Shown: positions 46,466-64,000 of the stretch, piece by piece
Layout: every line of letters begins with the position of its first letter
Numbering within the stretch: the stretch's first letter is position 1
Source of the DNA: Herpetosiphon giganteus
Lineage (GTDB): Bacteria; Chloroflexota; Chloroflexia; Chloroflexales; Herpetosiphonaceae
Length of the DNA: 64,000 nt
Direction of reading: 5' to 3'
Assembly: GCF_016907925.1 (NCBI RefSeq)
Contig: NZ_JAFBCZ010000001.1
Location: forward strand, 186,001-250,000
The notes under the pieces: generated by a model
What the model was told of the DNA's origin: nothing
The model's database searches: none
Seen by the model: the letters and a program-made list of their open reading frames with translations, nothing else
Program-made: the position numbers and the translations under genes

Positions 46466-46470
46466 TTTAC
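46466..46470. other. predicted 5-bp target site (attTn7) beside the element
   Basis: TTTAC directly precedes the TGT end of the element, 22-26 bases after the glmS stop codon, the position used by Tn7. If insertion was by the Tn7 mechanism, a second TTTAC should follow the unseen far end. Confidence 0.7.
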
Positions 46471-46560
46471 TGTGGAATGGGAATAAAGTTGGAAACTCGA
46501 AAATAAAGTTGGATACTACGAAAATAAAGTTGGAAACTCGAAAATAAAGTTGGAAACTAG
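46471..46560 (+). repeat. glmS-proximal transposon end with four TnsB-type binding sites
   Basis: After the terminal TGTGGAATGG come four abutting copies of AATAAAGTTGGAAACT-type repeats, beginning at 46481, 46501, 46522 and 46542 (period 20-21 bases). They resemble the TnsB sites of Tn7 (AAATAGTTGGGAACT). Four near-contiguous sites in 90 bases is the arrangement of the Tn7 right end. Confidence 0.92.
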
Positions 46561-46786: not shown

Positions 46787-47104
46787 TTAAGAACTCGTCA
46801 TTGGTACTATCCCATCCACGTAGAGAATACATTCTACAAGATCTCCAGAGTGGATAAATACTCTATGGACGCGTCGAGCTTCACACTGAGGAAATATAGA
46901 TAATACCGAAATCTCTAACAGCTTACATAATAGCTCTAGTTCGACGACGGATAACTTGCTCTTTCCTGCCTCGATCTCCACATATCGGCGACGCGTAGTC
47001 CTCAGTAAAGCCGCACATTTCGATACCGATATGCGACGCTCAACACGAGCTGCATTCAAGAGCTTACCGATTTCTTTACTCCGTTCATCTTGATCATATT
47101 TCAT
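46787..47104 (-). CDS. Xre-family HTH regulator divergent from tnsABC
   Basis: The 105-residue protein (from ATG 47104, with GGAG nine bases upstream; an ATG at 47119 is the alternative) contains a helix-turn-helix of the Xre type: IGKLLNAARVERRISVSKCA, LLRTTRRRYVEIEAGKSKLS. The C-terminal part is a small beta domain. It is transcribed away from tnsA across a 260-base AT-rich gap that contains both candidate promoters, so it is probably an autoregulator that limits transposase expression, which is an inference from position. It is the first gene inside the transposon end. Confidence 0.75.
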   Translation of the reverse strand: MKYDQDERSKEIGKLLNAARVERRISVSKCAALLRTTRRRYVEIEAGKSKLSVVELELLCKLLEISVLSIFPQCEARRVHRVFIHSGDLVECILYVDGIVPMTSS

Positions 47105-47129
47105 AGGCAAATGCTCCATATAGGGCTTA

Positions 47130-48195: not shown

Positions 48196-50422
48196 TCTAC
48201 TTTCTTGGCATGACGAAGATAAAAAACCAAGAATTGAACGGGTTCTCTATATTAACCCTGTCCATGATCTTATCTATACAATCGATATACATAGTCATGA
48301 GGCGCTCCCGATAGCCTATCGCTATGCTGATATTAAAGCAACCCTTCAACGTCATGATATTACAACAATTCAAGAAGAAGCCAACCACCATTCCCTTCTA
48401 CCAGATCCTCCTACCTCTGATCAAAGCATTAGAGATTACCAAATATGGGAATTACGCACTAAAAAAGTGCTAGCTCGAAGAGATCAACGTTGGAATCTTA
48501 TTGAGCCGCTTGTTCAATCCCTCGATATATATGATTATACAAAACGAGGAGAACTCATCCGAAAACGCGCAGAAGAAACCAAAACGACCAAAAAAACAAT
48601 TTATCTCTACTTACGACGGTATTGGCAGGGTGGAATGGTTAAGAATTCCCTGCTTCCCTCTTATGCGAATAGCGGAGGGAAAGGTAAACAGCGTGAACCT
48701 GGTTCGGCAAAACGTGGAAGACCAAATAGCCTTACTGCGACCACTGGTATATCCTTGGGTGTTAATATCGATACGCAAACTGGAATTCTTTTCTTTAAAG
48801 GTATTCAGAAATATTACAATATACCCGAGAAACCTTCACTCAAACAGGCTTTCGCAAAAATAACAAGCGAGTATTTTAGTAAAGCCACAGGCAGTGGCGA
48901 ATTCGGTAAAGTCGAACTTCTTGACCCTGCAAAGCGCCCCACCTTTGACCAATTTCGTTATTGGTACAACAAGTATGGTGATCCCCTTAAGGCATGGTCG
49001 AGGAGGGTTCGTCCTTCACGGTATGAGCGTATGCTCCACCCCGCGATCCATGATGTGACCGCAGTAGCATTTGGACCTGGCTCATGTTTTGAGGTTGATG
49101 CGACAATTGCCGATGTTTATCTTGTCAGTTCGCTTAACCCTCGGCGGATTGTGGGTCGACCCGTCATTTATATTGTCAAAGATGTATTCAGTCGAATGGT
49201 TGTGGGATTCTCAATCCTACTTGAAGGGCCGAGCTGGTTAGGCGCTATGTTTGCTCTCGAGAATGCAACCGCAAACAAAGTGGACTTCTGCAAAGAATAT
49301 GCCATAGAAATCAAGGAAGAAGATTGGCCTTGTCAGCACTTGTGCGATAAGTTACGTGCTGATCGGGGAGAATTCGAAGGCTATAATGCTGATAACCTCA
49401 CCGAAGGACTGAAGATTGAGGTAGAAAATACCGCTCCCTATCGTGCTGATTGGAAAGCAATTATCGAACGCGATTTTGGACTGTGTAATGAGCGGTTTAT
49501 CCACTTTCTTCCAGGTGCAGTACGCGTGCGTGAACGTGGCGAGAAAGACTACCGACTTGATGCTCGCCTGACCCTCCGTGACATGCGGCAACTGATGATT
49601 TTTCGAATCTTAGAATACAACCATACACATCGCCTAACGAACTATGAGTTTGATGAGGCCATGATGCATGCTCAAGTTGAGCCATATCCAATAGATTTAT
49701 GGTATTGGGGCATTCAAAATCGGGTAGGGGCGTTGCGAGTTCTTCCACAGAACACTATCAGGCAAAATCTTCTCTACCGAACGGAAGGGTCGATTACCAG
49801 CAAAGGTATTCGATTTCAAGGGTTGCGATATACATGTTCGACCGCCCACAAAGAGTTTTGGTTTGCGACTGCAAATCGAAAGGGGAGTTGGAAAACAACG
49901 ATCTTTTTTGACCCACGATGTTTAGATACGATCTTTATCCGACATTCAAATGGTGAGATGGAGCCATGTATCTTACTTGAACGCAAAAAGGCGTTCAAAC
50001 GACGAGACTTGTATGAAATTTTGGATTTTTCCATTAGCCGGCAGCAGTCTCAATATAAACGACGTGGGAGGGATGAACAGACAAGGGCTGATTTTGATCA
50101 GGAAATTGAGCGCATCAAATCAAGGGCGCAAAAACGACAAGAAGCGATAGCGAAGAACCGAGATAATGAAAGTGATCGACGACGGATAAAAGGCATACGT
50201 ACCGACCGGCAAGCCGAACGAGAATTGGATCGACAAAATAATTTATGGACTTTTTCCGATCAATCTCCCGCCGAAATTACTGAGGCGATTCCATCATCCG
50301 ATGCGCCGTTGACTGTTACCCCCATCCAAAAACCTCCACGAACAAGGTTCACAGAGTCCAGTACCGATTATGCATTTCTCCGCTCAGTCAGGGAAGATGT
50401 ACGCGAGGCAAACAATGAATAA
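48176..50422 (+). CDS. tnsB: TnsB DDE transposase
   Basis: ATG 48176 (AAAGGA upstream) gives 748 residues. The catalytic triad is D308 (FEVDATIADVY), D396 (LRADRGEF) and E431 (DWKAIIERDF), spaced 87 and 34 residues apart as in TnsB/Mu-type integrases. N-terminal HTH regions before residue 200 should read the AATAAAGTTGG sites at the transposon end. A lysine/arginine-rich C-terminal tail (residues 620-700) fits the TnsC-contact tail. TnsB cuts and joins the 3' ends. The gene overlaps tnsA at the start and tnsC by 8 bases at the end. Confidence 0.95.
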   Translation: MDLCLNSLLSWHDEDKKPRIERVLYINPVHDLIYTIDIHSHEALPIAYRYADIKATLQRHDITTIQEEANHHSLLPDPPTSDQSIRDYQIWELRTKKVLARRDQRWNLIEPLVQSLDIYDYTKRGELIRKRAEETKTTKKTIYLYLRRYWQGGMVKNSLLPSYANSGGKGKQREPGSAKRGRPNSLTATTGISLGVNIDTQTGILFFKGIQKYYNIPEKPSLKQAFAKITSEYFSKATGSGEFGKVELLDPAKRPTFDQFRYWYNKYGDPLKAWSRRVRPSRYERMLHPAIHDVTAVAFGPGSCFEVDATIADVYLVSSLNPRRIVGRPVIYIVKDVFSRMVVGFSILLEGPSWLGAMFALENATANKVDFCKEYAIEIKEEDWPCQHLCDKLRADRGEFEGYNADNLTEGLKIEVENTAPYRADWKAIIERDFGLCNERFIHFLPGAVRVRERGEKDYRLDARLTLRDMRQLMIFRILEYNHTHRLTNYEFDEAMMHAQVEPYPIDLWYWGIQNRVGALRVLPQNTIRQNLLYRTEGSITSKGIRFQGLRYTCSTAHKEFWFATANRKGSWKTTIFFDPRCLDTIFIRHSNGEMEPCILLERKKAFKRRDLYEILDFSISRQQSQYKRRGRDEQTRADFDQEIERIKSRAQKRQEAIAKNRDNESDRRRIKGIRTDRQAERELDRQNNLWTFSDQSPAEITEAIPSSDAPLTVTPIQKPPRTRFTESSTDYAFLRSVREDVREANNE

Positions 50423-51917
50423 GATCTATCATAATCCTTTTGGATGGAGTGGAGATGAAGAAGATGCTATTTATCATGAACAAATCCTGCCGATGTATCA
50501 GGATAATCCCTTGATCGAAGCCTTACCACCAATCCGGCCTTCAGTTGAAGTATTCCGTAATCTTACCAAATTTCCACCAATGAAGTCAGAATATCGGTTG
50601 TTGCCAGCGGAAGAACGTTTGCACTTGATCAGATGCATCGATCAGTTTTTTCAGCCATTGCCACGACATGGACGCTTATTTAGCGATATATGTGGAATGA
50701 TTTATAAAGGGTATATTGCTAGAAACCCTCTTTCAAAAGGATTTTGGAAAACACTAGATGGTAATGTTGATAAGCTCGTTGTCAACTTACGACAGAAAAA
50801 TCATATCGCATATAGAAAAAGTGCGACAACGATGAGCCTCATTGGAATCAGTGGTATTGGTAAATCTCGTAGTCTAGAAGAAGTCCTTAGCTTGTTCCCT
50901 CAAATAATTAATCACCATACCTATCGCGGAGTTCCATTTCCTTGGAAACAGCTTGTGTGGTTAAAGTTGGAATGCCCCCATAATGGTTCAACTCGTTCCC
51001 TCGGACTAGCTTTTTTTGAACAAATAGACTGGATTCTTGGAACAAACTATATGCATGGTTATGCACGTAATGGCCGAGCTACAGAGATGGAGTTGTTGAA
51101 GAATATGGCCAGAGTTGGGGCGATTCATTCATTAGGTGTATTAGTGATTGATGAAATCCAAGCCCTTAGTCAAGCCAAAAGTGGTGGAGCTGAGGAGATG
51201 CTTAATTTTTTTGTAGAGTTAGTTAATACTCTCGGCCTGCCAATTATCTTAATAGGCACATATAAGGCACAAAAACTATTCAGTCAAGCCTTCCGCCAAG
51301 CTCGACGAGCCAATTCCTATGGTGGGGATTCGTGGGATCGCATGAAAGTTGATGAAGATTGGAAACTATTTTTAGAAACCATTTGGCAATTTCAATATAC
51401 AAAACACCCAGTTAAGCTCACGGATCGGCTTGCCGAGACCTTGTACGATCTATCCCAAGGTATCACTGATATTGCAATCAAAGTATTCATTCTTGGGCAA
51501 ACACTAGCCATTAGAACTGGTGAAGAAAGGCTGTCACCAGAATTGCTTATCACAGCATCAGAAAGAGCGCTATCGATGGTACAACCATTCCTAACAGCTC
51601 TGAGAACAAATAATATGGATCAATTTATGCTGATGGAAGATATTCAACCAATTAATCTAGAAATAGCACTCAATGACCTCAATTCAATTTATACCAATCA
51701 ACAATCCTTGGAGCCTCATCTTGATAGTAATGAATCCCTATCTAAGAGGGCATTAGGAATCGATTTAGCAATTGATAGCTCGTCAGTTGATGCCTATGAT
51801 CAACTCAAGCAACAAAATCTTATTAGTGATATAGCCAGCGATCTTAGCTTTCTCTCTAGAAATGGGATGGAGGAATCAAATGAGGCATCAACTGAAAAAG
51901 AGGAGTCAGAAAAATGA
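50415..51917 (+). CDS. tnsC: TnsC AAA+ regulator
   Basis: The 500-residue protein from ATG 50415 has Walker A GISGIGKS at about residue 143-150 and Walker B VLVIDEIQAL near 242-251, with sensor-like IILIGTYKA downstream. TnsC forms ATP-dependent rings or filaments on target DNA, links TnsD/TniQ to TnsAB and sets target immunity. It resembles other Tn7-like TnsC proteins in length and order. The C-terminal 100 residues are low-complexity and acidic and likely bind TnsAB. Start and stop overlap the neighbouring genes (8 and 4 bases), consistent with one operon. Confidence 0.94.
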   Translation: MNKIYHNPFGWSGDEEDAIYHEQILPMYQDNPLIEALPPIRPSVEVFRNLTKFPPMKSEYRLLPAEERLHLIRCIDQFFQPLPRHGRLFSDICGMIYKGYIARNPLSKGFWKTLDGNVDKLVVNLRQKNHIAYRKSATTMSLIGISGIGKSRSLEEVLSLFPQIINHHTYRGVPFPWKQLVWLKLECPHNGSTRSLGLAFFEQIDWILGTNYMHGYARNGRATEMELLKNMARVGAIHSLGVLVIDEIQALSQAKSGGAEEMLNFFVELVNTLGLPIILIGTYKAQKLFSQAFRQARRANSYGGDSWDRMKVDEDWKLFLETIWQFQYTKHPVKLTDRLAETLYDLSQGITDIAIKVFILGQTLAIRTGEERLSPELLITASERALSMVQPFLTALRTNNMDQFMLMEDIQPINLEIALNDLNSIYTNQQSLEPHLDSNESLSKRALGIDLAIDSSSVDAYDQLKQQNLISDIASDLSFLSRNGMEESNEASTEKEESEK

Positions 51918-53782
51918 TGCTTACTCAATTTCCTATACCCTATCCGGATGAACTACTCTATAGTATTTGCGCGAGGTATACCGCACATATGCGCTTCGCC
52001 TCGGCTAACATTGCTGTTGAAGAACTTTTTGGCACACGAAATATTGTAGCTGTTGTTGATCTTCCTAGTCGGCTAGATACTTTAGCCAATAGGCTACCCA
52101 AGTCATTAGGTCTTAATTCGGAACTACTTATCAGCAACCACACGTCATTGCCTTTGTTTGCACCTTTTTTACCTGGTGATGCTCTCCACAGAGTCCGAGG
52201 TTCAATGTTCGGCAATAAGGGGGGAACAGTCCATTCTCGCATTGGTATTATGGCTAGCGGGGTTAAGAGCCTCAGAAAGCTGCGTTTTTGTCCAATGTGT
52301 GTCAATGAAGATCGTTCAAAATATGGGGAATGTTATTGGCATCGGGTTCATAATATCGCAGGAATCAATGTTTGTGCCCATCACGGATGCATTTTACAAG
52401 ATAGCATTCTTTCATTTCAACGACAGAGCACCTATTACGCCTACAACGCAGCAGAAGATTACATACCTGAGATAGAGTTTGCAGATCCGACTCCAGCAAA
52501 TCTGCATCTCTATGCTCTTGCCAAGCAAGCCTATTGGCTCTTAAACAATACATCTAATGCTGATCTGAATGATATGTACACTGTCTATCGAAGATGCCTT
52601 GATTTAAGAGGGTTTACGACGGCATCCAATAGCATTCGTCAGCAGCAACTTCAATCCACATTCATAGATTTCTACACGCCTGAATTGCTTGATACTATAT
52701 CTTGCTCTTTGGAAGATGTTCATCAAACATGGTTATCCCGTCTAGTTGGCGGAGATTACGTAGCACATCATCCTCTTCGTCATCTTCTGGTACTTCATTT
52801 CTTTGGCCACACGCCGGAGAGCGCATTGAAGAGTCTTGATGAACCTACGCCCGATCCATTCGGTCACGGCCCTTGGCCATGTCTTAATCGAGTTTGTCCA
52901 CATTCACACAAAGATGTTATTGAAACATGTAATGTAAGGCGTAGTCGGTATACCCGTGATCGGCCAATTGGGACATTTGCTTGTCCATTTTGTGGATTCA
53001 GCTATATACGGACAGGGCCGGATCAATCTCAGAACTCGCGATATCATATTAGTAAAATCCAGGCATTTGGCTTCATATGGGAAAAGAGACTAGTTGAACT
53101 TTTCGCTCAACAAATCCTGAGCCTACGTGCTATAAGTAAGATCTTGGGTGTTGATCCGAAGACCGTCAAACGTCATGCACAACGACTTATCTATACTGGT
53201 AATAAAACCTTAAATAAAGACCTATCGAACACTAATGCTAGCCGAGATGCGACTGATCTTCTAATATCACATCGACACACATGGCTTAAAGCGATTAAAG
53301 TTTTCCCTCAATTCGGCGTATCCCAGTTGAGAAAACGCTTTAGCGCGTCCTATGCTTGGCTTTACCGAAATGACAAAGCTTGGCTTGTTCTCCATACCCC
53401 AGCCAGATCTAGTCGAATTATCCGTACCAATCGAGTATCATGGCCAGCCCGAGACAAATTGCTAGCACAAGCAGTTCAAGAGGCAGCAACCAGAATTTTA
53501 AGCCAGGAACAATGGCCCAATCAAATGACCTTAGGTGCTATTGGAAGAGAGGCAGCCTGTCTCCCGATCCTACAGCAACATTTGGATAAGCTACCGCAAA
53601 CGGCAGATCGTCTGAAAAGTTTGGTGGAAACGAGAGAGGAGTGGGCTGTAAGGCGGCTCCAATGGACTATTAACCAAGCACAAAATCAAGGACTCATTCT
53701 CAAGGGCTGGGAAATTGTTCAACGCTCAGGCTTAGGTCGTTTCCCCAAGAAATGGTTTGAACATCACGGTATCCCGTTTTAA
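51914..53782 (+). CDS. tnsD: TnsD-type TniQ target selector
   Basis: The 622-residue protein has the TniQ N-terminus (PYPDELLYSICARYTAHM) and a zinc-binding site with C126-x-x-C129 (RFCPMCVNED) and C154-x-H-H157 (NVCAHHG), followed by an extended C-terminal region with further C-x(n)-C pairs (CNVRR, ACPFCGFSY at about 330-360) and predicted helix-turn-helix segments such as LRAISKILGVDPKTVKRHAQ. This is the layout of TnsD proteins that read the glmS coding end and place the element next to it. It is longer than Tn7 TnsD (508 aa). The start ATG overlaps tnsC by 4 bases. Confidence 0.92.
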   Translation: MMLTQFPIPYPDELLYSICARYTAHMRFASANIAVEELFGTRNIVAVVDLPSRLDTLANRLPKSLGLNSELLISNHTSLPLFAPFLPGDALHRVRGSMFGNKGGTVHSRIGIMASGVKSLRKLRFCPMCVNEDRSKYGECYWHRVHNIAGINVCAHHGCILQDSILSFQRQSTYYAYNAAEDYIPEIEFADPTPANLHLYALAKQAYWLLNNTSNADLNDMYTVYRRCLDLRGFTTASNSIRQQQLQSTFIDFYTPELLDTISCSLEDVHQTWLSRLVGGDYVAHHPLRHLLVLHFFGHTPESALKSLDEPTPDPFGHGPWPCLNRVCPHSHKDVIETCNVRRSRYTRDRPIGTFACPFCGFSYIRTGPDQSQNSRYHISKIQAFGFIWEKRLVELFAQQILSLRAISKILGVDPKTVKRHAQRLIYTGNKTLNKDLSNTNASRDATDLLISHRHTWLKAIKVFPQFGVSQLRKRFSASYAWLYRNDKAWLVLHTPARSSRIIRTNRVSWPARDKLLAQAVQEAATRILSQEQWPNQMTLGAIGREAACLPILQQHLDKLPQTADRLKSLVETREEWAVRRLQWTINQAQNQGLILKGWEIVQRSGLGRFPKKWFEHHGIPF

Positions 53783-53804: not shown

Positions 53805-53863
53805 TGTTCAGGTAATCTTATTGGCAATGTCTATGTTCATCTGCTAGTAAGATTACCTGAACA
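53805..53863. repeat. 16-bp perfect inverted repeat after tnsD
   Basis: TGTTCAGGTAATCTTA (53805-53820) and TAAGATTACCTGAACA (53848-53863) flank 27 bases, 22 bases after the tnsD stop. There is no T run, so it may be a protein-binding site, a recombination site or a terminator of another kind; it sits between convergent genes. Confidence 0.8.
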
Positions 53864-53997: not shown

Positions 53998-55227
53998 TTA
54001 AATTGGTTGTGGAATACTGCTTCCATGAGGTTCCTGAGTTGTAGTTAAGGTTTGCAAATCTTTTGATTGCGAGATCATCCAATCTTTCTGGGCCTCGGGA
54101 GAAATATAAACGGTTCGCAGGGTTACTGCACAACCGTGAGCATCAACCGCAGTAAATACACCAGGATACTCGTTGGGCAGTTGCGTTGGTGAAATAGCAC
54201 TATTGTTGAATATAGTGCGTATAGGCATTCGCTTACCATTCTGCTGAAAAATGGGATCTTTTTCCATCGGGCCGAGGAGTCGATCTGAGAAAAAATGATT
54301 GTAACAGGGCGCAAGATCTGACATATTGCGACTTTCAATGATAATCCGAAACCCTAATACAGGGCCATACATCATCAGTAGCATAAGGGCCTTATCAACA
54401 AGTTTCTTACCAATCGCGCTACTTATGGCAGCAGGGTCGGCAATATAGACAACGATCAAAGGTAAATCGTCACCGTTATAGGCATTCCATGTGAGAACAT
54501 GATGCGCTGCCAGTACCTCAGCCCGACGTTTTGCTTCAGCATGTAATTGTTTGATAGAGTCCAGTATTCCCTCAATACTCTGGGCGAACAAAAATGTATA
54601 GGCAGAGTTTTTCATTAAGGTAATATCCGCATCCTTAGTATTAAAAATGGCAAATTGAAGTTCACGAGGTGTTCGTTGGAGCGTCAGTGCTATCATTCCT
54701 GCCCACATCCATGCTGTTTTACCATAGCCTTCTGGACTAATAATAGCTACGTTATAGGTATCGGCACCAAGATCAGCATATGCCGCATCTGGTATCTGCT
54801 CTTGGGTAGACGGAATATACCATCCATAGGGGAAGAGATAACGTGCTTGTGGATCAATCGCTTGAAGATAGTCAATAGTCTCGATCAGTGTGGGTGGATT
54901 TAATAAGGCCATTCCCGTTTCGGGAATAGTTTTTAAATGCGTAAATGTTGGTTTGATAAGGCATGCTTGTGTTGGTTGAGAATGAATGCTGGAATTATTT
55001 TCTTGAGGATTGTGAGTCTGAGGAGGCGTTTTCCATACTGTTTCGATTTGAGGTGGTATGGTTCGAAGGAATTGGTATACGCGCAACACTTGTGGCCAGT
55101 GCCGATGCACGAGCATACACCCAATCATGCTCCAGAGAAAGAGAAGCGGCGCAATATTATCCCAAATAAATCCAAGCACGAGGCCTCCTACACCGTGTTT
55201 GAACCTCATCGATTCTAGCATTATCAT
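53998..55227 (-). CDS. FtsK/TraB-like P-loop ATPase with N-terminal membrane segment
   Basis: The protein (409 aa from ATG 55227; in-frame ATGs at 55221 and 55209 and a TTG at 55293 are alternatives) begins with one or two hydrophobic segments (GLVLGFIWDNIAPLLFLWSM) and then a P-loop ATPase domain. Walker A is SPEGYGKTAW, with Ser in place of the first Gly, and Walker B is LPLIVVYIAD. The layout agrees with conjugative FtsK/TraB/TcpA-like motors, but only one domain is present and the gamma DNA-reading domain is not recognised. It faces the tnsD gene and is divergent from the Xre gene at 55280. A role in DNA transfer or targeting is a guess. Confidence 0.6.
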   Translation of the reverse strand: MIMLESMRFKHGVGGLVLGFIWDNIAPLLFLWSMIGCMLVHRHWPQVLRVYQFLRTIPPQIETVWKTPPQTHNPQENNSSIHSQPTQACLIKPTFTHLKTIPETGMALLNPPTLIETIDYLQAIDPQARYLFPYGWYIPSTQEQIPDAAYADLGADTYNVAIISPEGYGKTAWMWAGMIALTLQRTPRELQFAIFNTKDADITLMKNSAYTFLFAQSIEGILDSIKQLHAEAKRRAEVLAAHHVLTWNAYNGDDLPLIVVYIADPAAISSAIGKKLVDKALMLLMMYGPVLGFRIIIESRNMSDLAPCYNHFFSDRLLGPMEKDPIFQQNGKRMPIRTIFNNSAISPTQLPNEYPGVFTAVDAHGCAVTLRTVYISPEAQKDWMISQSKDLQTLTTTQEPHGSSIPQPI

Positions 55228-55279
55228 AGCATAATTAATCCATTTTGGATTAAGAATATGGGCTGCATATGATAGCTTT

Positions 55280-55534
55280 ATGTCAGTCCTCAAACTCGAC
55301 TATCAAGATGCCTATCAACTCCTCGCTCGTCGGCTCAAAGAGGCGCGTGAATTAGCTGGTTTAACCCAAATCCAAGTGGCAGCCATTATGCACAAGTCAC
55401 AATCCTATGTAACCAAGTGCGAAACTGGTGAAAAGCGGGTTGATGTGATTGAGCTACTCATTTTCTCAAAGATCTATCATCGTGACCCCAGCTTTTTTAT
55501 TGATGATATTCTTCCCCTCGTACAGCCTTTTTAG
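55280..55534 (+). CDS. Xre-family HTH regulator
   Basis: This 84-residue protein is nearly all an Xre-type helix-turn-helix: ARRLKEARELAGLTQIQVAA, IMHKSQSYVTKCETGEKRVD, IELLIFSKIYHRDPSFFIDD. No Shine-Dalgarno sequence is visible before ATG 55280. It is divergent from the FtsK-like gene and 200 bases before the second TniQ gene, so it may control both. It is a different protein from the Xre at 46787. Confidence 0.82.
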   Translation: MSVLKLDYQDAYQLLARRLKEARELAGLTQIQVAAIMHKSQSYVTKCETGEKRVDVIELLIFSKIYHRDPSFFIDDILPLVQPF

Positions 55535-55737
55535 ATAACAATCACCACCATATACATTCAAGAATCCGCTATCCCAAGCCGAGAAGAATGGGGAAAGCAC
55601 AAGTTAACTAGGGGCATTCAGGAACTCAGGAGCTAGAGTATACGGCTTACTTAGATGATAAATCGCACGATTTAACGGCCTTAATTTGCCAAGAAGCGTT
55701 TAACATAGAATGATCTTTCAGTTCAGGAGTACACATT

Positions 55738-56643
55738 ATGGGGCACTACTTCCCATCTCTTTATCCTGGTGAAATATTCTATAGTGTCTGCGCAAGATAC
55801 TTAAGCCATCTGAGATATACCGATAAGAAATTTGCAAAATTAGAATTACTCCAACCATATACTATTTCTATCTATTTTCCAAGGAATATTACAGCTTTAT
55901 GTAATAAATATCAGATCGAGACACCATCGATAGAAGAAATAATCAATAAACATACTATATTTCCACTATTAAGAATTTTCCTCAGTAAGGAACACGCCTA
56001 TCTTAATGATTATAAAGATCCAAGTAAAATCTGGTCTATTCCGGCTTTAAAAAGGTATATCGATACCCATAAAAATGATCGATTAAGGTTTTGCAAAGAT
56101 TGTGTTATAGATGACAGGAAGACTTATGGAGAAGGATACTGGCATATTTTACATCAGGTACCTTGGATAAATATATGTTATAAACATTCCATCTTTTTAC
56201 ATACCCCTATATATCCTCGGAAAAACCTCATCAATAATTTTATTTCACTAGAAGATACTCTATCTAAATACAAAATAAAATATCTGTATAAAGTAAGGTC
56301 TATTCTCTATATGCTTTCAGATACTTTATTTATTTTCAATGAGCAACCAACTATAAGCTTTGATAAAATCTCAAATTCGATAAGAAGTATTATCTTAGAT
56401 AGAGGGTATACTCGAACAGGTATAAGTATCAGTCATAAAGCTTTATACAATAAAATTATAGATTCTTATCCAAAACAAACGATAGATTTTTTATATTCTT
56501 CAAAAACCATATCCAAGAAAAATTTTTCTATCATGATTATCCAAGATAATATCACCAGATCGCGTGTTGTTGCTTACCTCGTACTGTCCCACCTCCTTGG
56601 TTGTACACTACAGGATATCATCAAAAATTGTATGAATACATAA
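55738..56643 (+). CDS. short second TniQ-family protein (301 aa)
   Basis: The N-terminus (SLYPGEIFYSVCARYLSHLR) and the zinc site C119-x-x-C122 with C147 and H150 (RFCKDCVIDD, INICYKHS) are clear TniQ family features, similar to those of the TnsD above, but the protein ends after the TniQ core at residue 301 and lacks the long TnsD C-terminal DNA-binding region. Short TniQ proteins in other elements pair with a partner that finds the target (Cascade in CAST systems); no Cas gene or CRISPR repeat is seen here. The gene is much AT-richer than tnsABCD, so it may have a separate origin. AGGAG precedes the start. Confidence 0.8.
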   Translation: MGHYFPSLYPGEIFYSVCARYLSHLRYTDKKFAKLELLQPYTISIYFPRNITALCNKYQIETPSIEEIINKHTIFPLLRIFLSKEHAYLNDYKDPSKIWSIPALKRYIDTHKNDRLRFCKDCVIDDRKTYGEGYWHILHQVPWINICYKHSIFLHTPIYPRKNLINNFISLEDTLSKYKIKYLYKVRSILYMLSDTLFIFNEQPTISFDKISNSIRSIILDRGYTRTGISISHKALYNKIIDSYPKQTIDFLYSSKTISKKNFSIMIIQDNITRSRVVAYLVLSHLLGCTLQDIIKNCMNT

Positions 56644-56817: not shown

Positions 56818-57262
56818 TCAGGATATCGGTGTGGATGATGCAAGGATACGAACCAATCGTTGAATCATGGCCAGATGGACGAATCCGAGATAGTTCAGCG
56901 CCAGTTTCTCAAACCTCGTGGCCACCGAACGGCATCCTTGAGCCACCCAATGGTGCGTTCGATGCCATTGCAGGCACAATACGCCTGTGCGTCATAGCTA
57001 ATCGGACAACCGTCTTGCGCACCCCACGGCGGTGGCGTGGCGGAATCACTGACCGAGTCCCATGCTGCTGAAACCACTGACGGATACGGCGGGCATCGGA
57101 GCCGCAATCATCGGCCAGTTGGCGTGGTCGGCTGCGCGGTAATCCGCGCCGCTGGGGCACGATGACCTGCCGAATCAGGGTTTCGAACGCAGTGCTTTCA
57201 TGGGTCTGCCCATGTGTGAGGCAGGCGACCAAATAGGTGGTCACAACCATCAATGAACTCAT
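56818..57262 (-). pseudogene. IS5-family transposase remnant, truncated and frameshifted
   Basis: Three reading frames must be joined to follow the C-terminal end of an IS5/IS427-type transposase: VACLTHGQTHESTAFETLIR with IRQWFQQHGTRSVIPPRHRR, then CNGIERTIGWLKDA, then CRSVATRFEKLALNYLGFVH to the TGA at 56818-56820. The N-terminal half is missing. Outside the stop, GGCTCTGTCTGATAGTTCAG (from 56802) looks like the terminal inverted repeat, while no match is found at the other side. The high GC of this piece contrasts with its surroundings. Confidence 0.85.
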
Positions 57263-57566: not shown

Positions 57567-58550
57567 ATGCGATTAGCCTCACTATACTATCAAGATAATC
57601 GACACTGGCATCCACTTCCAGGATGGGGACAATTTTTTCTTCGTCTTGGCCAAGCTCTCGGTGCTAAGAAGTCCAACCATACTCGTACCGTAGTCGGACT
57701 TGTGCTTCCAACCCGTGCATATGCAGCTCCTTTGATTGCAAGCGGCATTGTTTTCGGTAAAATAAACACGCTTTTGCCTACAAAAAATAGCCACCAGCAC
57801 TTCACAATGCTCTGTCAACTGCCCTTTGGAACAAGTGTTATTTATCGAAACAACAACAATAGATTAAAAGGATTTATTGAGGATGTTTCTGAGATAGATG
57901 GCGAAATACGTATCAAAATTCGCGTGGGATCTCAAAAAAGTGGGAGTTTATCTCACTGGCTAAACCAAGAGCTTGCACAATCAGTTGATGTTAGTACCCG
58001 TGAGTTTGAACGGTTGCCGAACTCCCCGATGGGAAAGAAATTACCTACAGAATCGCGTTTTCTTGAGACATTTCTAGAACTCCAAAATACTCGCCAATTT
58101 TTTCATTACTCTCAAATGAATTGCACTATTATTGGCTCATTAAAAGATTTAGAAAATGAGCTTACCACAAACCAGTTTGGTGTTAAAACTCCAGCAGGAG
58201 ATATTATTGAAGGGAATCTTCAGCATATTATCCGTGTACGACGTTGGTTGACTAATGGAGAAGCTTATAGAAGTGAAATTTATCCAACGAGTCATCCTGT
58301 TGAATCATTAACAGATAATCCCGATACCGTTATATTCGATACCGCCAATAGTTTTCTTCGTTGGCGTAATCACTTCCGATCTTCTAATCAGGTTGTGATA
58401 CTTGATAAGACTGACCTTTATGTTGAGGATGCTATAAATGTATTTAATCAAGGTTATATTGATCATCGAACAATGATTGGTGGACTTGGACATTTTCCAC
58501 CTTTACCAAAAGGTTGTGAATATGTTATCTATCAGGAAAAACCTCTATGA
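57567..58550 (+). CDS. unrecognised protein at the head of the DISARM-like operon (327 aa)
   Basis: I do not recognise this family. The protein is soluble, starts MRLASLYYQDNRHWHPLPGW, and has a basic N-terminal half and a beta-rich middle with GFIEDVSEIDGEIRIKIRVG. The C-terminal third resembles an alpha/beta fold ending in a beta hairpin (LPKGCEYVIYQEKPL). Its stop overlaps the next ATG (58547), so it is cotranslated with the 528-aa protein. Together the two are 855 residues, roughly the size of DrmE, which lies upstream of drmA in class 2 DISARM; a split DrmE is one hypothesis. No Zn or nuclease motifs are seen. Confidence 0.6.
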   Translation: MRLASLYYQDNRHWHPLPGWGQFFLRLGQALGAKKSNHTRTVVGLVLPTRAYAAPLIASGIVFGKINTLLPTKNSHQHFTMLCQLPFGTSVIYRNNNNRLKGFIEDVSEIDGEIRIKIRVGSQKSGSLSHWLNQELAQSVDVSTREFERLPNSPMGKKLPTESRFLETFLELQNTRQFFHYSQMNCTIIGSLKDLENELTTNQFGVKTPAGDIIEGNLQHIIRVRRWLTNGEAYRSEIYPTSHPVESLTDNPDTVIFDTANSFLRWRNHFRSSNQVVILDKTDLYVEDAINVFNQGYIDHRTMIGGLGHFPPLPKGCEYVIYQEKPL

Positions 58551-60133
58551 TATCTAGGTCATTTGCTTCGATCAAACAACTATATTCCATAAATGCAAAT
58601 TGTAGTGTGAACTATTTCCAAGTTTATCAACAAGAACTTCACTCCATTTATAAACAAATACGTTCATTACAGTTTGCTCTTGGTTCGCTTGTAGAGGAGG
58701 AATTTTGGATAAAATTTTTATGGCGAATTAAGCGTTATTGCTTTGATGTGGCATCTACACCGCTTTCTTTTAGCCATTTATCAAATCTTTTTTTTGAAAA
58801 TCAGCATAAAACTATGCGATACTGTCGCACCATATACCCACATTTTGTAGCGGATGTAGAAGCAATATACAATACCCTTTTTTCGATATTTATGATTAAA
58901 GAAAATCCAATATTCATTACCATACAATCTTTATTACAAAATGATAATCATACAGCTATCCTTATTAAAGAACCTCGCTTAGTTAATTATGTAAATGATT
59001 TTTTTGTTTCGCAGAATAATTCCGCTCATATAGAAGTTATGCCTCCTGCAAAGCTTAAAGGAACAATATTCTATGAGAAAATAATCTGTATTGGTCCTAC
59101 AAGGTGGTTTCCTCGATATATTTTTTCTGCGGCACGATCACGAAAAATTGATGTTATTCAGTACGCATGGATGACGGATGTATTTAAATCTCAGCCATTA
59201 TTGGTAGGAACTATTTCTCCATCTAGGATTGAAGATAATGATGAAGACCACTTTACATCTGATCCCAGATACATAAATATATCTAATTCAGTGCAGACGA
59301 TTACTCCCTCCGAATCAAATATGGATCCGCCCGATGAAGATATGGTTCATCTTCTGACAAAAAAAACTCCTTTAAATGCTTCTGTAAAATCTTATGATGA
59401 TACAGTTGATGCACAGCTTTTTATCTTGGCAGACCGGACTGCTGTATTTCTAGAGGCTTCTGATACAACAAAAGTTCTTGTACTTGATGTTGGGAGTTCG
59501 TATGAAGATAGTTATACTAGCGAACAAACATTAATAACTCGCGTGCCTGTAAAGTTACTCCGTACTGGTATCTTTGTATTACTCAGAACTGGTGAGAGCG
59601 GAGATTATATAATTACCATTGCTGACCAAATTTTAGGTGTACGTGCAAGCCATCTACGATACTTACAAGAAGATTGGAAGGATAAACTCCGCCGACACGT
59701 ACAACGATCAGATCTTTTTCAAGTCAGCATAGCGTTACTTGACCATGGTTCTCTACTTGCACAAGAATCCAATGTGAGAAATTGGATGTCAAGTCGGACT
59801 ATTCGACCTCAAAAAGACTCAGATTTCAAAGCCATTATGCGTTTAATAGGTTATGAATCACAGTTTGATAAATATCAGAATGCAGCAAATGAAATCCGTA
59901 ATGCTCATCGGCAGGCAGGAAAAATGATTCGTCAGATGTTACTTAATCAAGTCCATTCTATTGATTACCATCAATTACATACACATGGACGGTTTGATTT
60001 TGTGTTACCGGATGTACCAGATATGACCTTATCAGCCTTCCGAATCAATCAGTGTATTAGCACCATTTCTCGGGTAACAGCAACCCGTATAGGACAAGTG
60101 TTTAATCTGGAGCATGAACTATGGCGCGAATGA
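58547..60133 (+). CDS. unrecognised protein, possible DrmE-like C-terminal part (528 aa)
   Basis: The protein is soluble. The N-terminal 220 residues are helical. An acidic, low-complexity linker (residues 225-280) and a beta-rich domain follow (TAVFLEASDTTKVLVLDVGS, GIFVLLRTGESGDYIITIAD). The C-terminal 150 residues are helical with a terminal FRINQCISTISRVTATRIGQ. I cannot name it with certainty; by position (just upstream of a helicase/drmA pair) and length it could be the second part of DrmE. AGGAAA precedes ATG 58547, and the stop overlaps the next gene. Confidence 0.6.
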   Translation: MISRSFASIKQLYSINANCSVNYFQVYQQELHSIYKQIRSLQFALGSLVEEEFWIKFLWRIKRYCFDVASTPLSFSHLSNLFFENQHKTMRYCRTIYPHFVADVEAIYNTLFSIFMIKENPIFITIQSLLQNDNHTAILIKEPRLVNYVNDFFVSQNNSAHIEVMPPAKLKGTIFYEKIICIGPTRWFPRYIFSAARSRKIDVIQYAWMTDVFKSQPLLVGTISPSRIEDNDEDHFTSDPRYINISNSVQTITPSESNMDPPDEDMVHLLTKKTPLNASVKSYDDTVDAQLFILADRTAVFLEASDTTKVLVLDVGSSYEDSYTSEQTLITRVPVKLLRTGIFVLLRTGESGDYIITIADQILGVRASHLRYLQEDWKDKLRRHVQRSDLFQVSIALLDHGSLLAQESNVRNWMSSRTIRPQKDSDFKAIMRLIGYESQFDKYQNAANEIRNAHRQAGKMIRQMLLNQVHSIDYHQLHTHGRFDFVLPDVPDMTLSAFRINQCISTISRVTATRIGQVFNLEHELWRE

Positions 60134-61845
60134 TCCCTCCCTATTTTGCTGAACAGACCGCAAGTCCAGGAGAGCGCGAGATTTTTATACGATTGAGAGA
60201 TGATCCATTGACGCATGATTGGACTATTCTCCATTCCCTAGACATTGTTCATCATCGGGAACAGATTAGCGGAGAAATTGATTTTGTTCTGATTATTCCG
60301 GAAAAAGGAGTACTTTGTGTAGAAGTTAAAGCATGTCGTTCGTTAAGCAGAAGCAATGGGTTATGGTTTTATGGAACGCAACCCCACGGTGATGCACGAG
60401 GCCCATTTAAGCAAGCATCATCTGCTATGCACAGTCTTCGCAAGGTACTTATCGATAAACATCCTGAGTTGAGAGGTCTTCTATTCTGGTCAGCTGTTAT
60501 TTTTCCATATTTGCGTTTCACCAATACATCGCCAGAATGGCATCAATGGCAGGTAATTGATAGTAGTGGTTTTACACGATCACTTAGTCAATCATTACTA
60601 GCCGTTATGAATAATGCTAAAACATTCTTCCAATCTCATCCTCGTACAGCTCATTTATACCAAGGACACGAACCTTCTCCCACATCACTACAAACAGATC
60701 AAATCATTGCATCGTTACGTTCTCACTTTGAGTTTTTTGAAAGCCCACAGTCACGTCGAAATCGGCTCGAATGCGATTTGAAGCGGTATACGATAGAGCA
60801 GTCAGTAGCCCTTGATGCTATGGCAACAAATCCACGAGTTATCTTTGCTGGGCCAGCAGGTACAGGCAAGACCATCCTAGCTATTGAATCAGTCCGACAA
60901 AGCGTAGCTTCTGGCCGTCGTGTACTTTTTCTCTGTTTTAATCGATCGCTGAGTCAGCATCTAATCGAACAAGTACAAGATCTCGGGACTCAGGTTAAGT
61001 GTGCAACTATACATAGTTATATGCTCCAATTAGTGAATATTTCAGCTGATCTCAATAATCCAACGTTCTGGAAAGAATCTCTTCCTAATGCAGCGATTGA
61101 ACACCTTCTAGATCAGTCGGAAGTGGCATTTGATGAGATTGTAATAGATGAAGCACAGGATATCTTGCGAGATAATTACCTTGATGTACTTGATTTGAGT
61201 GTAATTGGTGGCCTTGCAGCTGGACGATGGCGTTTTTTTGGAGATTTCGAAAAACAAGCAATCTATGACGCAGCAGACGTATCGCTCGACTCATTTATCA
61301 AGAACCGAGTTCCAAATGTTCCTGTGTTTCGGCTCCGCATAAATTGCCGGAATACCCCACGAATTGTGGAACACGTACATTTACTGAGTGGTTTAACGCC
61401 GAAATATAGCCGGACTCTTCGACCTGATGATCAAAGAGAACCAGAAATACATTATTACCAAGATGATATTACCCAAAAAAATCTATTGATTTCAATTATG
61501 GAACGACTATATAGTGAAGGATTTGCAGGCCGCGATATAGTAATTCTCTCTCCAATAAGTGGGAAAAATAGTCTTGCTTATAAGATACATCAGCATCCTT
61601 GGAAAGAGAGATTAACACCTTTTCGAGTTCGAGATCAACCAGGAGGTTATATCCAACACACATCTATTGCTGCATTTAAAGGAATGGAATCCGCTGTTGT
61701 AATTGTCACAGATATCGAAACAATCCTTGGCCTACACGCAAGTTCACTACTCTATATTGCTGTAACTCGAGCACTTCAACATCTAATCTTGCTTATGCAT
61801 ACAAGTACAAAGAAGGAAATTCAGCAGGTTCTCTCACTCCAATAA
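60121..61845 (+). CDS. NERD-domain SF1 (UvrD-like) helicase
   Basis: The 574-residue protein begins with a NERD nuclease-related domain (SGEIDFVLIIPEKGVLCVEV with the catalytic-type E-x-K, about residues 50-75). It continues with an SF1 helicase: Walker A AGPAGTGKT at about 242-250, Walker B VIDEAQDIL near 341-349, motif III-like INCRNTPRI, motif V-like TSIAAFKGMESAVVIV and motif VI YIAVTRALQHLIL. NERD-SF1 proteins recur in defence islands and are thought to process DNA, with the NERD domain cutting. It overlaps the preceding gene by 13 bases and lies 38 bases before drmA, so it belongs to this operon. It is not among the DISARM genes I know. Confidence 0.85.
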   Translation: MARMIPPYFAEQTASPGEREIFIRLRDDPLTHDWTILHSLDIVHHREQISGEIDFVLIIPEKGVLCVEVKACRSLSRSNGLWFYGTQPHGDARGPFKQASSAMHSLRKVLIDKHPELRGLLFWSAVIFPYLRFTNTSPEWHQWQVIDSSGFTRSLSQSLLAVMNNAKTFFQSHPRTAHLYQGHEPSPTSLQTDQIIASLRSHFEFFESPQSRRNRLECDLKRYTIEQSVALDAMATNPRVIFAGPAGTGKTILAIESVRQSVASGRRVLFLCFNRSLSQHLIEQVQDLGTQVKCATIHSYMLQLVNISADLNNPTFWKESLPNAAIEHLLDQSEVAFDEIVIDEAQDILRDNYLDVLDLSVIGGLAAGRWRFFGDFEKQAIYDAADVSLDSFIKNRVPNVPVFRLRINCRNTPRIVEHVHLLSGLTPKYSRTLRPDDQREPEIHYYQDDITQKNLLISIMERLYSEGFAGRDIVILSPISGKNSLAYKIHQHPWKERLTPFRVRDQPGGYIQHTSIAAFKGMESAVVIVTDIETILGLHASSLLYIAVTRALQHLILLMHTSTKKEIQQVLSLQ

Positions 61846-61883
61846 ATGTAATGGAGCTACTTCAATTTGAAAAGGAGGGATTG

Positions 61884-64000
61884 ATGGATAATCACCACCA
61901 GAACCGCAAGTATATTGTTGATCATCTGCGTGCAGAATTGGTTGGACCGATGCCAGAAGGAAGAGAGATTGATACAACCAAACCAGTTCGGTTTGATGAC
62001 CAGAAACAGGCATATGGACCTTGGAAGCAGGCCGAATCGGGTGAAGAGATCTTGATTCGTGATGTACCCCACAAGCGATATGGTATAGGAGTTTTATATC
62101 CCTTTGGTACCTTGCAAGAGCCAGAATTATCTAAAAATGACTTAGATATCGTCAATGATCCAATCATTAACAACACAACCCAGGAACACTTTGCTATTTT
62201 AACTGAAGATGCCTACAAAGCAGCTGAAACAATTGCTGCACGTATCGATGTTGCTGAAACTGAGGAGATGGATCTTTCAACTGCAAATTCCTACAAACCA
62301 AGTAGTATGGGAGTAAGTTTCTTAGCAGATCTGCCAAATAACAGTATGTTGGTAGTACATGTGACGGGGGGACGGTACCGACAACAGGCAGTGAGTGTGC
62401 AAGAGCGAGAACAAACATGGTGGTGTAGATCTTCTATTTCTGGTACGGCGATATTTACATCCGATGAATTAAAACTCTATCCATACAGATTTTTATGTTC
62501 CAAGCCGGTTGAAGGAACAAACCTCGAAAACTTCAAATTGAATATAGAAGTCTATTCTCGTCCTACTCGTAACCTAGGGGAACGTTTACTTACCATCAGT
62601 TTGGTAAATCGCAATATCGGTACCGAGAATAATGATCAATCGATGCTATTTCAAAGTCACTTTAAGGTAACACTTACATCAGACTCATTATCAGAACACG
62701 ACGGATGGATTCATCCCTATCCTAGTTACCTGACTATTGCTCCTGATGCGGAAGAGCAGTCTCTATCGTTATTATATCGTCATGCTGAAATATTTGCTAC
62801 TGGACATGGGTGTGCAGCAGATTGGGGTATTGCTAGTACATCTTTAGAAAAATCTAAAGGATATGTAGGGTGGGTGAGTGCAGAATGTTTACCGTGTGTA
62901 GAAACACCTAGTATTACACCAGATATTTTAGATTCAAGTGGGGAAAAGATTATTGTTCCAATGGCACCACTAGCAGGATTGATTGCAACCGATGATGGAT
63001 TTCAGTCACTTGATAGGGTGATTGAAGGGTATGAGACTTGGATTAAACAAAAACAGTCTGAGCTTGAGCAACTTGCACCCCAATACCAAGCAGCCGCACA
63101 AGATCATCTTAATCAATGCCGCACATGTGCCAATCGTATGCGTGATGGAGTTCAATATCTCCGCACAAATTCAAATGCTGAAAAGGCTTTTCGCCTAGCG
63201 AATCACGCAATGCTGCTTCAGCAGGTTCGTGCAAATCCCAAAATTCGGTATTACCAATACGATAGTATTACTCAAACCAGTTCCTTTTCAGAACCTTTTA
63301 GTGAACCTGATTTACTTTTGGGTAACAAACGTGGAAACTGGCGTCCATTTCAAATCGCGTTTCTTTTGATGTCACTTCAATCTACAGCCGATGGAAATAT
63401 AGAAGATCGACGTATGGTCGAGTTGATTTGGTTTCCGACGGGGGGTGGCAAAACCGAAGCCTATTTAGGTCTCGCTGCGTTTTCGATATTCTTCCGTCGG
63501 CTTATAGATCCTAGGGATACTGGTGTGCAAGTATTGATGAGATATACTCTTCGATTACTTACCGCGCAGCAGTTCCAACGTGCGGCAGGTTTAATATGTG
63601 CTATGGAATATTTACGCCGACAAAACCAATCTGTTTTAGGTGTTGACCCTCTTACAATTGGTATTTGGCTTGGATCTTCAATTACTCCCAATACCCGTAA
63701 AGATGCACGGAATATATTAGCTGAACTACGAAGAGAACAAGGTGAAAATAAATTTATTCTTACTCGATGTCCTTGGTGTAGAGCCCAAATTGGACCTATA
63801 AAATCATCCGCTCAGACTACAAGAACACGATCAAAACGGAAACGTGATAGTAGTCCTACTGTTGTGGGATATGAAACCGATACACAATCAGTAATATTCA
63901 GATGCTCTGACGAAAAGTGTCCATTTCACATACAGCTTCCAGTATATGTAATTGATGAGGATGTGTATCTCAAGCGACCTTCACTTGTTATAGGGACAGT
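61884..64000 (+). CDS. drmA: DrmA-type DISARM helicase, 3' partial
   Basis: ATG 61884 follows AAAGGAGGG; an in-frame ATG at 61851 is also possible. The frame is open to the window end (at least 705 residues). The N-terminus YIVDHLRAELVGPMPEGREI and RYGIGVLYPFG resemble DrmA proteins. The SF2 motif I is WFPTGGGKTEAYLGL at about residue 514-528, motif Ia is VQVLMRYTLRLLTAQQ, and a zinc-ribbon-like CPWC is followed by C-x(4)-C and the typical LPVYVIDEDVYLKRPSLVIGT that precedes the DEAD-like box in DrmA. DrmA is the core helicase of DISARM anti-phage systems and acts with DrmB and a PLD nuclease, DrmC. These and any methylase would be expected beyond the window. Confidence 0.85.
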   Translation, partial: MDNHHQNRKYIVDHLRAELVGPMPEGREIDTTKPVRFDDQKQAYGPWKQAESGEEILIRDVPHKRYGIGVLYPFGTLQEPELSKNDLDIVNDPIINNTTQEHFAILTEDAYKAAETIAARIDVAETEEMDLSTANSYKPSSMGVSFLADLPNNSMLVVHVTGGRYRQQAVSVQEREQTWWCRSSISGTAIFTSDELKLYPYRFLCSKPVEGTNLENFKLNIEVYSRPTRNLGERLLTISLVNRNIGTENNDQSMLFQSHFKVTLTSDSLSEHDGWIHPYPSYLTIAPDAEEQSLSLLYRHAEIFATGHGCAADWGIASTSLEKSKGYVGWVSAECLPCVETPSITPDILDSSGEKIIVPMAPLAGLIATDDGFQSLDRVIEGYETWIKQKQSELEQLAPQYQAAAQDHLNQCRTCANRMRDGVQYLRTNSNAEKAFRLANHAMLLQQVRANPKIRYYQYDSITQTSSFSEPFSEPDLLLGNKRGNWRPFQIAFLLMSLQSTADGNIEDRRMVELIWFPTGGGKTEAYLGLAAFSIFFRRLIDPRDTGVQVLMRYTLRLLTAQQFQRAAGLICAMEYLRRQNQSVLGVDPLTIGIWLGSSITPNTRKDARNILAELRREQGENKFILTRCPWCRAQIGPIKSSAQTTRTRSKRKRDSSPTVVGYETDTQSVIFRCSDEKCPFHIQLPVYVIDEDVYLKRPSLVIGT

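What the first reader, a model, noticed from the sequence alone, without database searches (positions are those of the whole stretch)
53998..56643. Second, short TniQ with FtsK-like ATPase and Xre protein: possible new target-selection module
In a Tn7-like element with its own TnsD, a 301-aa TniQ has kept the zinc site but lacks the C-terminal DNA-binding region. Such short TniQ proteins usually need a partner that finds DNA, and in I-B CAST elements that partner is Cascade. Here no Cas gene is visible; its neighbours are a membrane FtsK/TraB-like motor and an Xre regulator. A module that directs insertion toward conjugating or replicating DNA, in the manner of TnsE, is a possible reading. It could also be a decaying remnant.
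Basis: inference. Interest (0 to 1): 0.85.

Follow-up and report, generated by a model that had tools for sequence, protein, structure and literature searches.

The report
Tn7-like transposon with second short TniQ
A complete Tn7-type jumping element in a soil bacterium carries, besides its normal address-finder, a second stripped-down copy that selection has kept intact although no CRISPR or TnsE partner was found, so it may serve an insertion route that is not yet known.

Summary
The window carries a complete 22,965-bp Tn7-type element of Herpetosiphon, 22-26 bp after glmS, with a 5-bp target duplication. It encodes Xre, TnsABC, TnsD, an FtsK-like ATPase, Xre2, the 301-aa TniQ and DISARM-like cargo. 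No cas gene, CRISPR-like array or tnsE was found in it; two Cas7 profiles and a TnsE profile find nothing in the genome. The short TniQ matches the TnsC-binding part of TnsD. It is not decaying: against H. aurantiacus dN/dS is 0.13 (9 nonsynonymous, 17 synonymous changes). The core was exchanged between the two species (dS 0.01-0.12, xre_up 0.31; glmS 0.80), with different cargo. FtsK is not a dedicated partner of the short TniQ: a second, very different Tn7-like element in the same genome has an FtsK (31% identity) in the same place, convergent after tniQ, without short TniQ or Xre2. FtsK follows tnsD/tniQ in 3 of 3 Herpetosiphon elements and 0 of 4 others in the order. Dual TniQ-TnsD loci are a known class; this one, with no known selector and with a Tn7-linked FtsK, is a new variant.

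The parts
46466..46470 (.). 5-bp target-site duplication TTTAC, 22-26 bp after the glmS stop; the second copy lies beyond the window at L004:8436-8440 (window-equivalent 69436-69440)
46471..46558 (+). Left end of the element (TGTGG...) with four TnsB-site-like repeats AATAAAGTTGGAWACT; three inverted copies at the right end, window-equivalent 69286-69424; element 46471-69435 = 22,965 bp
46787..47119 (-). Xre-family regulator divergent from tnsA; relatives in the same place in the C3 element and in L070
47365..48195 (+). TnsA
   Evidence: Pfam PF08722, PF08721
48113..50422 (+). TnsB
   Evidence: PF09299; PADLOC TnsB
50370..51917 (+). TnsC, AAA/TniB
51914..53782 (+). TnsD, full length, TniQ plus TnsD domain
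   Evidence: tree
53805..53863 (.). 22-nt inverted repeat between tnsD and ftsK; possibly a terminator, but the terminator scan did not list it
53998..55209 (-). FtsK-like ATPase with an N-terminal hydrophobic segment (the TTG ORF extends to 55293); groups with the other Tn7-linked FtsKs
55280..55534 (+). Xre2, 84-aa HTH protein divergent from ftsK
55738..56643 (+). TniQ2, 301-aa core-only TniQ (corresponds to the TnsC-recruiting region of TnsD)
56909..57262 (-). probable fragment of a DDE transposase (insertion-sequence remnant)
   Evidence: PF01609 E=0.017, below cut-off
57567..64000 (+). Cargo: DISARM-like genes (unnamed 327 aa, DrmE_C, NERD-helicase, DrmA; DrmB and a C5 methylase follow beyond the window)

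Best explanation
This is a dual TniQ-TnsD Tn7-type transposon. TnsD presumably sends it to the chromosomal glmS site (position and target duplication are shown; the role of TnsD follows from Tn7). The second TniQ is a TnsD-related protein reduced to the TnsC-binding core. Most likely it is an adaptor that brings TnsC and the transposase to a second kind of target through another DNA-finding factor, taking the place of the tnsE pathway (inferred). The factor is not identified; no Cascade was found. The neighbouring FtsK-like ATPase is an accessory of Herpetosiphon Tn7-like cores in general rather than the dedicated partner of the short TniQ, and Xre2 most likely regulates ftsK and/or tniQ2 (inferred).
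For: Complete element with TSD at attTn7. A profile of TniQ2 and eight relatives aligns with residues 3-294 of the 318-residue Tn7 TnsD chain 8glu (E=3e-51); TniQ2 alone matches it over residues 5-153 (E=9e-8). In Tn7 the TnsC-interaction region is TnsD 1-309, and C-terminally truncated TnsD keeps TnsC binding but loses DNA binding (PMC2918618, passages). Purifying selection on TniQ2, P=8e-7. The block from the left end to just past tniQ2 is shared at 94-96% DNA by two species whose glmS dS is 0.80, with different cargo. No Cas7 (PF01905, PF05107) and no TnsE_C in the genome, no CRISPR-like array in the element. A short TniQ is proposed as a hallmark of elements with an additional selector (PMC10293859, section 11). 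FtsK adjoins tnsD/tniQ in 3 of 3 Herpetosiphon elements, one of which has no short TniQ.
Against: No partner protein is identified. TniQ2 is known from only two genomes (2 of 400 in the phylum sample), so dN/dS rests on one pair of sequences. A core-only TniQ could instead modulate TnsD. AlphaFold models failed (mean pLDDT 35 and 36), so no fold or complex supports the adaptor role. In H. aurantiacus the element has a deletion in tnsB and a disrupted tnsD start. Cas families other than Cas7, and TnsF, were not searched genome-wide.
Confidence: 0.5

Rival explanations
1. TniQ2 is a regulator, not a selector: a TnsD-like fragment that binds TnsC without finding DNA and so limits or tunes TnsD-directed transposition.
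For: Truncated TnsD binds TnsC but not DNA (PMC2918618, passages). Only two TniQ2 sequences known and no partner found.
Against: In other dual TniQ-TnsD loci the short protein works with an extra selector (PMC10293859). TniQ2 is strongly diverged from its TnsD (25-26% identity), which a simple competitor need not be.
Confidence: 0.18
2. The FtsK-like ATPase is itself the second selector (a TnsE substitute), working with TniQ2 or directly with TnsC to send the element to plasmids or other replicating or segregating DNA.
For: The three Tn7-linked FtsKs form one side of a branch at 100/100 and have the same place and orientation in two very different elements; relatives sit on plasmids, in a cassette with ParM- or partition-like proteins where this was tested; no TnsE in the genome.
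Against: No binding data; the C3 element has FtsK but no short TniQ; Walker B is degenerate; FtsK is on the opposite strand and under weaker constraint (dN/dS 0.33); not found with Tn7-like elements outside the genus.
Confidence: 0.12
3. FtsK and Xre2 are ordinary cargo or stability genes and TniQ2 works with a host factor.
For: FtsK-family proteins are common in this genus (8 profile matches in this genome, the two Tn7-linked ones and ordinary FtsK-type proteins included); FtsK was not found in 19 stretches around other Chloroflexota TniQ genes.
Against: Presence at the same place in both elements is not expected by chance (crude estimate 4e-8), although exchange between elements could explain it; cargo differs between the two species but ftsK, xre2 and tniQ2 stay.
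Confidence: 0.2
4. A former I-B1 CAST that lost its Cas genes.
For: I-B1 CASTs also pair a glmS TnsD with a TniQ that seems to come from a truncated TnsD (PMC11406308, passages).
Against: The TniQ_IB profile scores TniQ2 (35 bits) below its own TnsD (69) and a staphylococcal TnsD (57); no Cas7 in the genome; I-B1 is reported only from cyanobacteria; TniQ2 shows purifying selection. No I-B1 TniQ sequence could be compared directly.
Confidence: 0.06
5. Decaying remnant of a second TnsD.
For: Low G+C of 30.5% against 40-46% in the other core genes; an insertion-sequence fragment lies 266 bp downstream.
Against: dN/dS 0.13, identical stop in two species, and the H. aurantiacus tniQ2 is intact although its tnsB and tnsD are damaged.
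Confidence: 0.04

Closest known systems
Dual TniQ-TnsD Tn7-like transposons (Faure et al. 2023, PMC10293859)
   Same: Long TnsD-type protein plus a short core-only TniQ with tnsABC; 998 dual loci of all kinds counted there
   Different: Here no cas or tnsE gene was found (TnsF was not searched for specifically), and an FtsK-like ATPase and an Xre gene lie between tnsD and tniQ; 'FtsK' and 'Xre' do not occur in that paper's main text
CAST I-B1 (AvCAST)
   Same: glmS-homing TnsD plus a short TniQ thought to derive from a truncated TnsD
   Different: No Cascade gene or array found; TniQ2 is not I-B-like by profile; host is Chloroflexota
Canonical Tn7 (TnsABCDE)
   Same: Gene order tnsABCD, glmS site, 5-bp TSD, TnsB-site-like repeats at both ends
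   Different: No tnsE; ftsK-xre2-tniQ2 follow tnsD, where tnsE follows it in pLEW6932 and, as recalled, in Tn7
Tn6022 (TniQ plus TnsF, tnsE on the opposite strand; PMC10293859)
   Same: Short TniQ, and an accessory gene on the opposite strand
   Different: Pfam names no tyrosine-recombinase-like protein among the ORFs scanned (TnsF itself not searched); target is glmS, not comM
FtsK/SpoIIIE proteins of Herpetosiphon plasmids pHAU01 and pHAU02
   Same: Homologous ATPase domain, about 27% identity
   Different: Plasmid forms sit in a partition-like cassette and have a C-terminal extension; the Tn7-linked ones lack both and differ in Walker A and B

Membership tests
Tn7-type (glmS) transposon | tnsA, tnsB, tnsC and tnsD in order | tested here: met
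Tn7-type (glmS) transposon | Insertion about 25 bp after glmS with a 5-bp TSD and repeats at both ends | tested here: met
   TTTAC at both ends, 22-26 bp after the stop
Tn7-type (glmS) transposon | tnsE present (almost universal in glmS elements per PMC11406308; not strictly defining) | tested here: not met
   PF18623 absent from the genome at E<=1; positive control: staphylococcal TnsE E=1e-17. A divergent TnsE could be missed
Dual TniQ-TnsD element | A second, smaller TniQ with core and zinc finger and no long C-terminal region | tested here: met
   301 aa, CCCH ligands, ends before the second TnsD segment
Dual TniQ-TnsD element | A separate selector that works with the short TniQ | not testable with these tools
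   needs binding or transposition assays
CAST I-B1 | Cas5/6/7/8 genes and CRISPR array in the element | tested here: not met
   Cas7 absent from the genome
CAST I-B1 | TniQ sequence of the I-B group | tested here: inconclusive
   profile score below those of TnsDs; no I-B1 sequence compared directly
FtsK/SpoIIIE motor | Pfam FtsK_SpoIIIE above cut-off | tested here: not met
   20 bits against a cut-off of 24; its C3 sister 29.9 bits, above
FtsK/SpoIIIE motor | Intact Walker A and Walker B | tested here: inconclusive
   Walker A GKT present; Walker B acidic pair degenerate

The most novel reading that the evidence does not exclude
In Herpetosiphon the tnsE pathway of Tn7-like elements has been replaced by a transposon-adapted FtsK-family ATPase, related to those of plasmid partition-like cassettes, that guides TnsC (in the glmS element through the core-only TniQ2) to plasmids carrying related FtsK proteins: a motor-family-based kind of Tn7 target selection.
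Probability: 0.09. Interest if true: 0.85.

Novelty: new variant of a known kind. Interest (0 to 1): 0.45.

Why it matters
The Tn7 selectors described in the papers seen are TnsD/TniQ proteins, TnsE, TnsF and CRISPR effectors. A selected core-only TniQ with none of these partners found suggests one more way of finding targets, and within the element the candidates are few (a host factor remains possible). A new TniQ partner would also bear on how TniQ was repeatedly recruited by CRISPR systems. The FtsK found in two very different Tn7-like elements is a second, testable accessory factor.

Tried and rejected
Cas genes further along the element: rejected, both ends found. Cascade in trans: Cas7 profiles PF01905 and PF05107 find nothing in the genome; other Cas families were not searched genome-wide. 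Damage by the neighbouring insertion sequence as cause of the short TniQ: rejected, H. aurantiacus has the same stop, and its homology ends at window 56764, before the IS fragment. FtsK adjacency in other Chloroflexota: none in 19 stretches holding 22 of the 29 TniQ matches outside G000 and G102 (1,540 ORFs, L086 included; the profile recovers its own members; several contigs are short). The other 7 matches were not fetched; one search lists no FtsK hit on their contigs. FtsK elsewhere: plasmids gave only the two Herpetosiphon plasmids, the genome contigs pattern scan only H. aurantiacus, viral contigs none. Short TniQ in viral contigs: none; an alignment search found one TnsD-type protein of 484 aa. 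AlphaFold2 on TniQ2 twice, with 3 and 5 sequences: unusable, so no fold search was made. Ends of the C3 element: not found in the 35 kb examined. Promoter- and terminator-like sites around the three genes are no more than in shuffles (14 against 12.2, 2 against 1.6). Tree of TniQ2 with its own TnsD as sister: unresolved (29/0); two fragments of one Stenotrophomonas TnsD (L097) were dropped before that tree. The FtsK tree holds the 3 Tn7-linked and 20 other sequences; homologues first listed (in G411, G424, G430, G402, G401, G000 contig C40, G070 contig C29 and others) were not put in. A protein of 210-218 aa after cyanobacterial TniQs (L093, L094), alike by eye, was not pursued.

Full report
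Where it is. The window lies on contig C1 of a 6.16-Mb genome. Its sibling G102 is Herpetosiphon aurantiacus DSM 785: its contig lengths 6,346,587, 339,639 and 99,204 equal those of CP000875, CP000876 and CP000877. So the host is a Herpetosiphon species (same genus as G102).

The element. Four TnsB-site-like repeats start 38 bp after glmS; three inverted copies lie 22.8 kb further on, beyond the window. The left end TGTGGAATGGG and the right end CCCGTGCACA are flanked by TTTAC on both sides, 22-26 bp after the glmS stop. No Cas or TnsE is among them and no CRISPR-like array was seen. Genome-wide, PF01905, PF05107 and PF18623 find nothing. In the 14 control genomes the two Cas7 profiles ring in 2 and 3, TnsE_C in 3 but in none over its cut-off; a staphylococcal TnsE is recognised.

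The short TniQ. It has the CCCH zinc ligands and ends where most TnsDs go on to a second segment. By sequence its best solved relative is the 318-residue Tn7 TnsD chain 8glu: E=9e-8 over residues 5-153 for TniQ2 alone, E=3e-51 over chain residues 3-294 for the profile of nine sequences. In Tn7 the TnsC-binding region is TnsD 1-309, and C-terminal deletions keep TnsC binding but not DNA binding (PMC2918618, passages). In a tree of 31 TniQ/TnsD cores TniQ2 falls in an 11-row group with Tn7-type TnsDs (100/100), away from the other Chloroflexota TniQs; its sister is unresolved. 'Tn7-type' is my label; the insertion sites of those other elements were not checked. The H. aurantiacus copy has a weak match, below cut-off, to the first third of the TnsD domain (E=0.0065).

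Selection and movement. Between the two species TniQ2 differs by 17 synonymous and 9 nonsynonymous changes (dN/dS 0.128, P=8.3e-7 against neutrality); ftsK by 30 and 36 (0.33, P=3e-5); xre2 by 3 and 5 (0.48, not significant). glmS has dS 0.80, while the element's genes have 0.01-0.12, except xre_up at 0.31. The block from the left end to window 56764 was therefore probably exchanged after the species split, with different cargo. The uneven dS (tnsC 0.01, tnsD 0.12) hints at recombination within it. The H. aurantiacus copy has a 46-nt deletion in tnsB and a disrupted tnsD start, so it is probably immobile now, and its flanks show no matching TSD.

FtsK belongs to the core, not to TniQ2. A second Tn7-like element in the same genome (contig C3) has Xre, tnsA, tnsB, tnsC, a 712-aa TniQ with HTH repeats, and then, 74 bp on and convergent, an FtsK 31% identical to that of the window. 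The two transposition cores are very different (best TnsB segment 27%, TnsA 20%). The three Tn7-linked FtsKs are one side of a branch at 100/100 among 23 sequences, though the C3 one is a long branch and odd in composition, and not all homologues were in the tree. PF06527 finds only three genes in the genome, so no short TniQ goes with C3. In 82 genomes of the order 6 have TniQ genes, in 7 elements; by contig position FtsK adjoins 3 of 7, all three in Herpetosiphon; two of the three are copies of one element. In the wider phylum none of 19 fetched stretches around TniQ genes had one. A crude placement estimate gives 2e-4 per element, but exchange between elements would also explain it.

What FtsK may be. 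Relatives on plasmids and chromosomes often stand in a cassette: a protein of about 400 aa, one of about 140 aa, a hydrophobic protein of 170-240 aa and FtsK. The 400-aa protein was tested at four loci: two match the ParM model NF010498 weakly, far below its cut-off (E=1.5e-5, 1.3e-4), one matches phrog_691, partition protein (E=1e-8), one matches neither NCBIfam model. The Tn7-linked forms lack these neighbours and the C-terminal extension, and have an N-terminal hydrophobic segment (further hydrophobic windows lie inside the ATPase domain), a GKT Walker A instead of GKD, and a degenerate Walker B. Whether they hydrolyse ATP is open.

Literature. Faure et al. 2023 (PMC10293859; abstract, sections 8, 10, 11, 28 and passages read) count 998 dual TniQ-TnsD loci and propose a small TniQ as a hallmark of an additional selector. 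The review PMC11406308 (passages) says tnsE is almost universal in glmS and comM elements and that I-B1 TniQ seems to come from a truncated TnsD. PMC8649781 (passages) does not contain the words FtsK or DISARM in its main text. Searches for Tn7-like/FtsK/TniQ and Tn7/FtsK/transposition/target selection found no paper; Tn7/TnsD/FtsK found one, on Pseudomonas resistance elements (listing only); Herpetosiphon/Tn7 found one, on metabolic engineering (listing only). This library lacks most subscription papers.

Judgement. A known class (dual TniQ-TnsD) with an unusual gap: none of the known partners was found. The short TniQ is real and kept by selection; its partner is unknown. FtsK is a separate and rather unexpected find whose role is open.

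Noticed in passing
L043:3396 to L101:384 (G102:C1:4953396-5080184): In H. aurantiacus DSM 785 the left and right end repeats of the sister element lie about 126.8 kb apart and enclose very large ORFs (up to 6,684 aa); the ones translated (L044) look like polyketide synthases by eye. No matching TSD (CTTCT / TTAGC).
   Followed up: partly
window 57567-64000 and L004:1-7718: DISARM-like cargo (DrmE_C, NERD-helicase, DrmA, DrmB, C5 methylase) inside the Tn7-type element.
   Followed up: partly
window 46787-47119, L007:6446-6775, L070:14580-14963: A related Xre regulator (32-49% identity) lies divergent from tnsA in three different Tn7-like elements, possibly a conserved regulator of tnsABC.
   Followed up: partly
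L048, L050, L051, L060, L061, L064: A recurring cassette in Herpetosiphon plasmids and chromosomes: protein of about 400 aa (ParM- or partition-like where tested), protein of about 140 aa, hydrophobic protein, FtsK-like ATPase.
   Followed up: partly
L007:1932-6255: Upstream of the C3 element an AAA ATPase, small proteins and a nucleotidyltransferase-like protein look like a CBASS-type defence locus (by eye only).
   Followed up: no
L093:12001-13802, L094:12001-14238: Cyanobacterial plasmid Tn7-like elements with a 318-aa or 445-aa TniQ/TnsD followed by a protein of 210-218 aa, alike by eye and of unknown function; a possible partner.
   Followed up: no
window 55738-56643 and L007:13165-14232: tniQ2 (30.5% G+C) and the C3 ftsK (32.3%) are much more AT-rich than the other core genes of their elements (40-50%), suggesting separate acquisition.
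   Followed up: no
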